A stretch of 64,000 bases of DNA from Tachypleus tridentatus. Lineage: Eukaryota; Arthropoda; Merostomata; Xiphosura; Limulidae. The stretch covers positions 158,761,310-158,825,309 of the forward strand of contig NC_134837.1 in NCBI RefSeq assembly GCF_004210375.1. The letters run 5' to 3'. Within the stretch, counting starts at the first letter, position 1; each line of letters starts with the position of its first letter. Positions 59,025 through 61,854 of the stretch are shown piece by piece. The translations under genes were made by a program, and so were the position numbers. A model generated the notes under the pieces. That model was given only the letters and a program-made list of their open reading frames with translations, made no database searches and was not told where the DNA came from.

Positions 59025-59302
59025 TTTGTTTGTTTTTTTAATTTCGCGTAAAGCTACTCTAGGGCTATCTGCGCCAGCCATCTCTAATTCAGCAGTATAA
59101 AGCTAGAGGGAAGGCAGCTAGTCATCACCACTCACCGCCAACTCTTGAGCTACTTTTTTACCAACGAATAGTGGGATTGACCGTCACATTATAACGCCCC
59201 CACGGCTGAAAGGGCGAGCTTGTTTGGTGTGACAGGGATTCAAACCCGCGACACTCGGATTACGAGTCGAGTGCTTTTACCACCTGGCCATGCCGAGCCC
59301 AT
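59025..59302 (-). mobile_element. tRNA-derived SINE, near full length
   Basis: Reverse-strand copy with an almost perfect target duplication: ACAGCAAGGG (59015-59024) and ACAGCAGGGG (59303-59312). It ends 71 bp left of the long-TIR element. Confidence 0.92.
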
Positions 59303-59373
59303 ACAGCAGGGGAGATGCTTATATTTAAAAAGACACCTGTAGTTTGTTTAGAGTCAGTTAATCAATTACACTA

Positions 59374-59514
59374 TGTAACACAAATTTTTTTTCCAGGATA
59401 GTATGTGTTATTTCTTAATTGCTTATGTTGTAAAAGTACAGAAAATGGCTATTATTCCCTTCAAACTTCGCTTTGGTGACCTGGATATTGAAATTTAGAG
59501 ATTAACCTATTTTC
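59374..59514 (+). repeat. left terminal inverted repeat
   Basis: Begins TGTAACACAAA directly after a TA at 59372. Pairs with 61677-61825, apart from small gaps near 59393 and 59429. Confidence 0.72.
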
Positions 59515-59687
59515 TATGCAAAAACAGGCAAATTTGCACATTTGCATTTACATAAAGTCTGAATAAAACAACATATAAATCAAGATTTACATGTATTTAT
59601 ATTAAAGTTATACAAAAGTAAACAAAAATGTTTAGAAGTGAGTAGTTTTCGAGATTTGCGACTGAGATGTAAATCACTTTTACGTAT

Positions 59688-61480
59688 CAGCTCCCAAAAA
59701 TAGTCTCCCACCATTTTTCGTTATACGCTCCTTGATAGCGGCGTTCAATGTCCAGTATATCTTGGTAGAAGCGCTCGCCTTGCTCCTCTGAGTATGCTCC
59801 CATGTTATTCTTGAATTTATCAAGACGAACATCAACGATATGGACTTTCAGGGATATTCTGCAGCCCATTTTGCCGTAGTTCTTCACCAGAGTCTCAACC
59901 AGTTCCACATAATTTTCGACCTTGTGATTGCCCAAGAAGCCCCGAACCACTGCGACAAAGCTGCCCTAAGGTTTTCTCCTTCCTGCTGAGCCTCTTGGGG
60001 AATTCTGTGCACTCCAGGATCTTCTTTATTTGTGGTTCAATGAAGACACCAACATTGACCTTTGCCTCAGACAGCTTAGGAAAGAAGCCTTTGCAGTACT
60101 TGAAGGCTGCAGACACCTTATCAAGAGCTGTGACAAATTGCTTCATGTGCAATGGTGGAAACAACACCTTCTGAAGGTCCACTAGTGGCTCACACTTGAC
60201 ATTGTGCCTCCCCAAAGAGAACTCGGTCCGTTGTGGCCATAGCTACCTGTTGTCCTGCGCTGTGGTGTCCCTGCTGTCCCAAAGGCAAAGATAACAGGGA
60301 AACTTGGTAAAGCTTCCTTGGAGACCCATCAGGAGCGCCACCATTTTGAAGGCTCCAATAGCTTCCCAGTCATACTCATCATACTTCAAGGCTTCTAGCA
60401 AGGTCTCGATGCTGCTGTATTCCTCTTTGAGGTGCAGCGAGTGAGCCAGGGGAAGAGACGGATACTTATTCCCGTTATGGAGCAGCACAGCATTGAGGCT
60501 TCTGGATGAGCTATCAATGAAGAGGCGCCACTCGTTCGGGTTTCAGACAATTCCAATTGTGGCAGAAGCAGAGCCCATCTTGACGAGTTAAGAAGCTTGA
60601 CGAATGTCGGTCTGACTTGCGACTTGCACACTTTCATCTAACAAATCCCACTCCTTGAGCCTAGATGTCAAAAGCTCGGCATTCGACTTTGTTAGACCAA
60701 GATCTCTGATTAAGTCATTGAGGTCTCTTTGGTTGGGGTAGTATGGGTTTCTCTCACCAGCTGCACCTCTAAAATTGTAATCTGGATTTTCAACGTCTAC
60801 CTCCTCTTCTGATTTGTTGGTTTCTTCTGAGGATGACTGCTTTCTCTCTGGTGGAGTTGGTACAGGGAGCTTAGGGCAGTGTAGCACTGGGGCGATAGAT
60901 GATGGAAGATCCGGATACATGATATCAAATGCATTCTTGCCAGCCCGACGTTTGGAAGGGTCCACCATGCAGAAGTAGTAATTGCTTGCGTGGCCAGTGG
61001 ATTCACCTTAAATTCTTGGAATAGCGAACTTCATGGTTCTTTTTTCCCTCTGTACCATCCTGCAAAAGAGCAAAATAAAATTATTATAAAGAATAAATTT
61101 ATTTCATCTGCAACTAGTGTGTAAGAGGTTCATGCAAAATATTTTATTTGTGATATTTTTCTGTACTATTGGAAATAAAAAAATAAATTAAAAGATATTT
61201 AATTTTTTTAAGATCTAATATTTGTATAAGATAAAATCTTACTATTCAAGCAAGCAAAATTTTCCGTCTTACTTTCTAGAGTTTTTTTGCAGTGCTCGCA
61301 GGTAAAATGAGGTGCCCAGGGTTTGTCTTGATTCCCGACAGGCATGCCGAAATATGCTTTGTTGGCATCATTTCTTTTAAGCAGATGCTGTCACAAAGTA
61401 TTTTTTGCTCTTGTCTTGATAAATTGGTTACATACATAGCAGAATGCGTCTAGAGAATGCTTGCAGCTTCTTGATGCCAT
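59688..61480 (-). pseudogene. broken two-exon zinc-finger/transposase-like gene inside the TIR element
   Basis: Exon 1 starts at 61480 (MASRSCKHSLDAFCYVC) and reaches about 61273, encoding Cys-x2-Cys pairs (FCYVC, FTCEHC). A GT-AG intron follows, with acceptor CTTTTGCAG at 61061. Exon 2 encodes SNYYFCMVDPSKRRAGKNAF, an acidic Ser-rich stretch and the helix DLNDLIRDLGLTKSNAELLT. The core has NPNEWRLFIDSSSRSLNAVL, a GAFKMVALLMGLQ segment, CYLCLWDSRD, FPKLSEAKVNVGVF and MGAYSEEQGERF. I recall near-identical predicted proteins in many copies from horseshoe crabs, aphids, Hydra and coelacanth, without a named function. An RNase-H-like DD(E) fold is my inference: Asp in FIDSS, Asp or here Ala in GAFK, Glu in SEEQGE. 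Several frame breaks make it non-functional. Confidence 0.75.
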
Positions 61481-61676
61481 CTCTGATAAAATCACATAGG
61501 TCTACGTGTTCACTTAGGCAGCTAGAATTAAACTGAAGTGGTGAGCCCTACATATATATTACTATAGAAAGTTCTAGAAAATTCTAAAAGGTTCTTGAAA
61601 ATTCTCATAAAATTCTTGTAAGTTCGAGAAAATTCTATATCAGTTACTTAGCACTGAATCTACATGGAATATTGTG

Positions 61677-61825
61677 GAAAATGGGTAAATTTGAAAATTT
61701 AATTACCCATGTCACAAAAGCAAAGTTTGCAGAGAAAAATAGGTCTTTTCCATTTACTTTAAGCATAAGGAATTGGGAAATAACATTTTCCGCCCAGGAA
61801 TAAGAAAAATAAAAATTTTGTTACA
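61677..61825 (-). repeat. right terminal inverted repeat
   Basis: Ends TTTTGTTACA directly before a TA at 61826. It is the inverted partner of 59374-59514. Confidence 0.72.
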
Positions 61826-61854
61826 TATTGTTATTGTCAGGGTTTAATTGTTTA

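What the first reader, a model, noticed from the sequence alone, without database searches (positions are those of the whole stretch)
59374..61825. Long-TIR DNA transposon carrying a multi-copy zinc-finger gene family of unknown superfamily
The sequence directly shows ~145-bp inverted ends with TA flanks around a broken minus-strand gene. The encoded protein belongs to a family I know only as many anonymous predicted proteins in distant animals. Having it framed by inverted ends explains its copy number and patchy distribution, and makes it a candidate transposase not covered by the standard superfamily list. This is the best candidate in the window for something undescribed.
Basis: partly seen in the sequence, partly recalled or inferred. 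Interest (0 to 1): 0.82.

Follow-up and report, generated by a model that had tools for sequence, protein, structure and literature searches.

The report
Dead Chapaev3 transposon in horseshoe crab
This is a decayed copy of a cut-and-paste DNA transposon of the already described Chapaev3 kind, present in thousands of copies in a horseshoe crab genome; the family may be new but the kind is ordinary.

Summary
The inverted ends and broken minus-strand gene are real, and thousands of genomic copies share the ends; boundaries and superfamily need correcting. Of 41 distinct sites with both ends, 28 carry the same TTA or TAA at both, 2 one of each; A precedes in 39, T follows in 37. Genome-wide 2,804 of 3,362 perfect left and 1,522 of 1,923 perfect right ends follow ATWA. 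The gene has two predicted exons, candidate D, D, E residues and C(2)C, LH, H(4)H motifs. Zhang et al. 2014 (PMC4079192) give these traits for Chapaev3 (CMC group), with two exons in Merrow and Garfield. Host: a horseshoe crab (coagulin). No Chapaev3 protein could be compared, structure predictions were too weak and empty sites not clean, so membership rests on termini, target site, motifs and gene anatomy. Verdict: ordinary; a possibly unnamed family of a known kind.

The parts
59366..59368 (.). target-site duplication, left copy (TTA), preceded by A
   Evidence: same TWA at both ends in other copies
59369..59514 (+). left terminal inverted repeat, starts CACTATGTAACACAAATTTT
   Evidence: 3,362 perfect copies of the family's first 20 bases in the genome
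59632..61059 (-). decayed exon 2 of the transposase gene (catalytic region; the family's stop codon would be at 59632-59634)
   Evidence: frames; acceptor; coordinates worked out by hand
60243..60542 (-). best preserved frame: first D (LFIDSS) and CYLC = C(2)C; the second D of the family (GDFKM) reads GAFKM here
59687..59965 (-). C-terminal frame with the candidate catalytic E (EEQGERFYQD); H(4)H of the family (VHILDAH) reads VHIVDVR here, second H lost
61060..61272 (-). predicted intron, donor GTAAGAC, acceptor TTTTGCAG
   Evidence: of 11 near-full-length copies 8 show the GTAAG donor and 9 the CAG acceptor; no RNA evidence
61273..61480 (-). decayed exon 1: N-terminal cysteine-rich (zinc-finger-like) part, starts MASRSCKH, frameshifted
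61677..61830 (-). right terminal inverted repeat; outermost bases decayed (CAATATGTAAC for CACTATGTAAC)
   Evidence: 1,923 perfect copies of the first 18 bases of the family's right end in the genome
61831..61833 (.). target-site duplication, right copy (TTA), followed by T

Best explanation
It is a dead copy of a Chapaev3-type (CMC group: CACTA-Mirage-Chapaev) cut-and-paste DNA transposon. Shown here: CAC..GTG ends, about 155-bp imperfect inverted repeats, 3-bp TWA duplication in an A_T context, a transposase gene with a predicted intron and with D, D, C(2)C, LH, H(4)H, E in that order, thousands of copies of the ends, and many internally shortened copies. Inferred: the intact protein bound the ends through its N-terminal cysteine-rich part, cut the element out with an RNase-H-like DDE domain carrying a zinc-binding insertion, and joined it to target DNA with a 3-bp stagger at ATWAT. 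Deleted copies, including a roughly 480-bp short form, were moved in trans. The copies read here are decayed; whether any copy is still active was not tested.
For: Both ends in 45 copies (41 distinct sites): TAA/TAA 15, TTA/TTA 13, TTA with TAA 2 (Fisher p 1.8e-6 on these 30); A on the 5' side 39 of 41, T on the 3' side 37 of 41. Pairs of perfect ends from the listed places on C1: 16 of 18 concordant (one of the 18, at C1:1617503, is locus L064 of the first set). ATWA before 2,804 of 3,362 perfect left ends and 1,522 of 1,923 perfect right ends. Motifs retained, counted on read-through frames: D1 29 of 31, D2 22 of 31, C(2)C 29 and 30 of 31, LH 30 and 31 of 33, H(4)H 16 of 17 and 13 of 16, E 12 of 16. 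Predicted intron in the same place: GTAAG donor in 8 of 11 and CAG acceptor in 9 of 11 near-full-length copies. Published Chapaev3 description: CAC/GTG, TWA, A and T neighbours, C(2)C + LH + H(4)H, two exons in Merrow and Garfield; Garfield_BM 2,289 bp, 556 aa (PMC4079192, passages, part 1 of section 13).
Against: No sequence comparison with a Chapaev3 transposase was possible. The AlphaFold models were poor (mean pLDDT 34.6 and 49.2), and the fold searches gave nothing at E<=0.001. The paralogous empty site found (L050) falls in an A-rich stretch and does not fix the duplication to the base; L058 in a 38-bp array is not clean. The window's joined flanks have no match across the junction. At 11 of the 41 sites the outer trinucleotides are neither the same TTA or TAA nor a TTA/TAA swap (one is CAA/CAA; some are offsets of the automatic boundary, e.g. 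L021 and L049). The second D is kept in only 22 of 31 frames, below the mean majority fraction of 0.86 over all positions. Two exons are said to be the exception within Chapaev3 (PMC4079192).
Confidence: 0.9

Rival explanations
1. An undescribed transposase superfamily that only shares the CAC..GTG ends and TWA target with Chapaev3.
For: None of the nine frames scanned matches Pfam at a curated cut-off; PDB sequence searches gave only chance-level matches.
Against: Termini, duplication, neighbouring A and T, motif order C(2)C-LH-H(4)H, predicted two-exon gene and size all agree with Merrow/Garfield (PMC4079192). Absence of a Pfam match says little if Pfam holds no Chapaev3 model, which was not checked separately.
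Confidence: 0.05
2. A PIF/Harbinger element, which (TWA recalled; 3-bp duplications in PMC12730594) also makes 3-bp duplications.
For: 3-bp TWA duplication.
Against: No match to a Harbinger-type DDE nuclease or Myb model in the Pfam scans; CAC..GTG termini; [quoted passage not shown]
Confidence: 0.02
3. An EnSpm/CACTA element in the narrow sense (CAC ends, 2-3 bp duplications).
For: CACTA at the very terminus (CACTATG); 3-bp duplication; CMC-type motifs.
Against: No Transposase_21 match in the Pfam scans nor in the genome search (where no control rang either); the fixed TWA with A and T neighbours is described for Chapaev3.
Confidence: 0.02
4. A TA-targeting element (Tc1/mariner, ISL2EU or other), as the reader's TA flanks would suggest.
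For: TA dinucleotides next to TGTAACA at both ends of the window copy.
Against: That TA lies 3 bases inside the terminus shared by the copies; identity between copies continues through CAC and stops after ATWA.
Confidence: 0.01

Closest known systems
Merrow and Garfield families of Chapaev3 (Zhang et al. 2014, PMC4079192)
   Same: CAC..GTG ends, TWA duplication between A and T, C(2)C/LH/H(4)H motifs, two exons, similar size (Garfield_BM 2,289 bp and 556 aa; here 2,462 bp and about 545 codons by hand), short deletion derivatives (described there for Garfield and Conan)
   Different: Host is a horseshoe crab; sequence identity to Merrow/Garfield could not be measured; about 155-bp imperfect inverted repeats here, their length in Merrow/Garfield was not in the text I read
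Other Chapaev3 (Conan and Repbase Chapaev3 entries)
   Same: target site; CAC..GTG ends are given for Chapaev in general
   Different: most other Chapaev3 are said to be single-exon (PMC4079192)
Transib / RAG1 and other CMCT transposases (PMC12730594)
   Same: C(2)C and H(3-4)H between second D and E; here 19 residues from second D to C(2)C, as in RAG1 (recalled)
   Different: Transib makes 5-bp duplications (recalled); no sequence or fold match was obtained here

Membership tests
Chapaev3 (CMC) | termini 5'-CAC..GTG-3' | tested here: met
Chapaev3 (CMC) | 3-bp TWA target-site duplication | tested here: met
   28 of 41 sites identical TTA or TAA, 2 swapped, 11 other; 16 of 18 end pairs on C1
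Chapaev3 (CMC) | A on the 5' side and T on the 3' side of the duplication | tested here: met
   39 of 41 and 37 of 41; ATWA before 83% of left and 79% of right perfect ends
Chapaev3 (CMC) | transposase with C(2)C, LH, H(4)H motifs | tested here: met
   36-row alignment A2 of read-through frames
Chapaev3 (CMC) | DDE catalytic triad in an RNase-H fold | tested here: inconclusive
   candidate D, D, E in the right order; models too weak
Chapaev3 (CMC) | paralogous empty sites with one TWA | tested here: inconclusive
   L050 site spanned by repeats without the insert, junction A-rich; L058 not clean; window site none
Chapaev3 (CMC) | transposase groups with Chapaev3 in a tree | not testable with these tools
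   no Repbase; no relatives in viral contigs, genome contigs or plasmids (searches used a single peptide pattern each)
Merrow/Garfield subgroup | two exons | tested here: met
   predicted from sequence: donor in 8 of 11, acceptor in 9 of 11 near-full-length copies; no transcript seen
PIF/Harbinger | Harbinger DDE nuclease (and Myb-like second protein) | tested here: not met
   no such Pfam match among nine frames
EnSpm/CACTA | Transposase_21-type transposase | tested here: not met
   no match to the frames; genome search empty, controls silent too
Tc1/mariner or ISL2EU | TA duplication at the element boundary | tested here: not met
   TA is internal to the shared terminus

The most novel reading that the evidence does not exclude
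Probability: 0.08. Interest if true: 0.4.

Novelty: new member of a known kind. Interest (0 to 1): 0.17.

Why it matters
Mainly as annotation: the anonymous multi-copy gene is a transposase and should be masked, not counted as a host gene family. A Tachypleus tridentatus genome paper (PMC7011531, passages read) reports that library-based masking identified only 0.99% of that genome as repeats, so named repeat families for horseshoe crabs were scarce then. Three searches of the paper library showed me no paper on Chapaev elements in horseshoe crabs; only listings were read (1 of 1, 15 of 777 and 8 of 857 papers), so this is weak evidence that the family is unnamed.

Tried and rejected
TA target site: rejected, internal to the terminus. 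PIF/Harbinger, EnSpm and Tc1/mariner: see rivals. Clean empty site: the window's joined flanks gave, besides themselves, only matches to the dispersed repeat in the left flank. L058 sits in a 38-bp array, but the joined flanks align to the array only with a gap of about 16-20 bases. L050 sits in a multi-copy repeat: 38 of 40 matches span the junction, 16 of those 38 were fetched and aligned, and the junction is A-rich and only consistent with one TAA. Relatives elsewhere: viral contigs (the two pattern hits are unrelated frames by eye), genome contigs, plasmids: none. Structure: two AlphaFold jobs, both low confidence, fold searches without meaning. Sequence searches of the PDB: only chance-level matches. 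ARAGORN on the left-flank repeat: no tRNA; Rfam: one sub-threshold match to an unrelated family, E 0.0067, 28 bits against a gathering score of 65.7. Yuan and Wessler 2011 is not held; its content is cited only through PMC4079192.

Full report
Observation. The window lies at G000:C13:158761310-158825309 of a 2.17-Gb genome. Inverted arms are present at 59385-59514 / 61677-61806 (130 nt, 71%) and 59363-59392 / 61807-61836 (30 nt, 83%). Between them at least six pieces of the minus-strand gene lie in changing frames (these six were scanned).

Boundaries. Of the 66 loci fetched up to, 45 gave a left and a right end in the right order. Identity between copies runs outwards to CACTATG and stops after AT[T/A]A. 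After collapsing four copies with the same flanks as another, 41 distinct sites remain, the window copy being one of them. Their outer trinucleotides are TAA/TAA 15, TTA/TTA 13, TTA/TAA 2, TAA/TTA 0, CAA/CAA 1, and ten others; some of the ten are offsets of the automatic boundary rather than decay (L021, L049). The linked change at the two ends shows that TWA is target sequence copied at insertion and not part of the element. The next base out is A in 39 of 41 and T in 37 of 41. Genome-wide, ATWA precedes 2,804 of 3,362 perfect 20-base left ends and 1,522 of 1,923 perfect 18-base right ends; with 34% each of A and T about 3% would be expected (my arithmetic, base composition assumed). The reversed-pattern controls of the four searches found 0, 0, 0 and 1 matches. 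From the first 100 left ends and the 69 right ends listed on C1 below 90.5 Mb, 18 pairs formed within 4 kb, and 16 of 18 carry matching TWA; one of the 18 is L064, already among the 41.

In the window the element is 59369-61830 between TTA duplications at 59366-59368 and 61831-61833.

Gene. The 11 near-full-length copies (2.44-2.56 kb) all have broken frames (ten translated, the window copy), but the pieces line up. Exon 1 encodes MASRSCKH..CKKTLE, a predicted intron of about 210 bp follows, and exon 2 begins GATGG. The GTAAG donor is seen in 8 of 11 and the CAG acceptor in 9 of 11. There is no transcript evidence. By hand the coding length is about 545 codons in the window copy. On a 36-row alignment (A2) the candidates are D (LFIDS) in 29 of 31, D (GDFKM) in 22 of 31, C(2)C 29 and 30 of 31, LH 30 and 31 of 33, H(4)H 16 of 17 and 13 of 16, and E 12 of 16, against a mean majority fraction of 0.86 over all positions; the spacings are D-54-D-19-C(2)C-46-LH-108-H(4)H-17-E. 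So the motifs are mostly present but, except for C(2)C, LH and the first D and H, not better kept than the average residue, as expected of dead copies. These are read-through frames. Differences between copies per codon position are 0.138, 0.116 and 0.161: mostly neutral decay with a trace of past selection. A longer query gave 128 reported matches out of 12,515 first-look candidates. The longest frames reported without a stop inside the match were 383 and 365 aa, short of exon 2 (about 475 codons), but those copies were not fetched, so an intact copy is not excluded.

Copy structure. Of the 41 sites, 11 are at least 2.4 kb, one is 2.04 kb and 29 are 1.30-1.84 kb, with varied internal deletions where breakpoints were looked at (loci up to L046). 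The sample was chosen by matches to the gene or to the ends. Nine of the 18 C1 pairs are 467-497 bp, a short non-autonomous form. Divergence from the majority at the ends has a median of 0.047 (left) and 0.079 (right); the window copy has 0.063 and 0.080.

Host. The family Coagulin has 19 matches here, all marked over its cut-off, and none in 14 control genomes; that this clotting protein marks horseshoe crabs is recalled.

What it is. Zhang et al. 2014 (PMC4079192; passages, part 1 of section 13) give for Chapaev3: TWA duplications, always A before and T after; CAC..GTG ends for Chapaev; C(2)C/LH/H(4)H motifs; Garfield_BM 2,289 bp with two exons for 556 aa; two exons shared by Merrow and Garfield, while most other Chapaev3 have one. 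[quoted passage not shown] The element fits each of these traits that could be tested.

What could not be shown. No Chapaev3 protein could be compared. Pfam matches were chance level. AlphaFold gave mean pLDDT 34.6 and 49.2, and the fold searches had no match at E<=0.001. Empty sites were not clean. The name therefore rests on anatomy, not on sequence homology, and I put it at 0.9.

Judgement. The finding's main claim, an undescribed superfamily with TA flanks, fails. What remains is a high-copy Chapaev3 family in a horseshoe crab, possibly unnamed, with two small curiosities (satellite growth at right ends; a one-sided excess of left ends) recorded below.

Noticed in passing
L011 2100-3008 (and its inverted duplicate L010); L063 2829-2989: Tandem arrays (91 bp x 10; 27 bp x 6) whose unit is the transposon's right terminus plus flanking DNA: satellite arrays starting at the insertion border, at 2 of 41 distinct sites.
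   Followed up: partly
G000 genome-wide, left-end 20-mer: Left ends are unevenly oriented, 2,059 forward to 1,303 reverse, while right ends are balanced (928 to 995) and the 100 listed left ends on C1 below 90.5 Mb are 50 to 50; about 750 extra left ends seem to lie in one orientation elsewhere, perhaps in a tandem array.
   Followed up: no
C1 below 90.5 Mb: A short form of 467-497 bp makes up 9 of 18 end pairs, and one pair spans 177 bp: a probable non-autonomous derivative.
   Followed up: partly
G000:C12:46031982, 46038378, 46044769; C8:160892953, 160898824; C7:116432573, 116438999: Copies repeat at 5.9-6.4 kb spacing, with the same flanks in the C12 and C8 groups (the C7 pair was not fetched): tandem duplications that carry the element.
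   Followed up: no
G000:C19: Contig C19 (69.8 Mb) holds 8 of the 40 scored left-end matches, about six times its share of the genome (884 first-look candidates, best 40 scored).
   Followed up: no
window 59034-59305: A dispersed repeat next to the left end; it looks like a tRNA-derived SINE to me (recalled). The 200-base left flank matches 36 of 66 other sources in my set, the window and other loci of this site included, but ARAGORN gives no tRNA and Rfam only a sub-threshold match to an unrelated family.
   Followed up: partly
L058 2249-2668 and 5227-6941: A full-length copy sits inside a 38-bp tandem array beside a 93-bp array.
   Followed up: no
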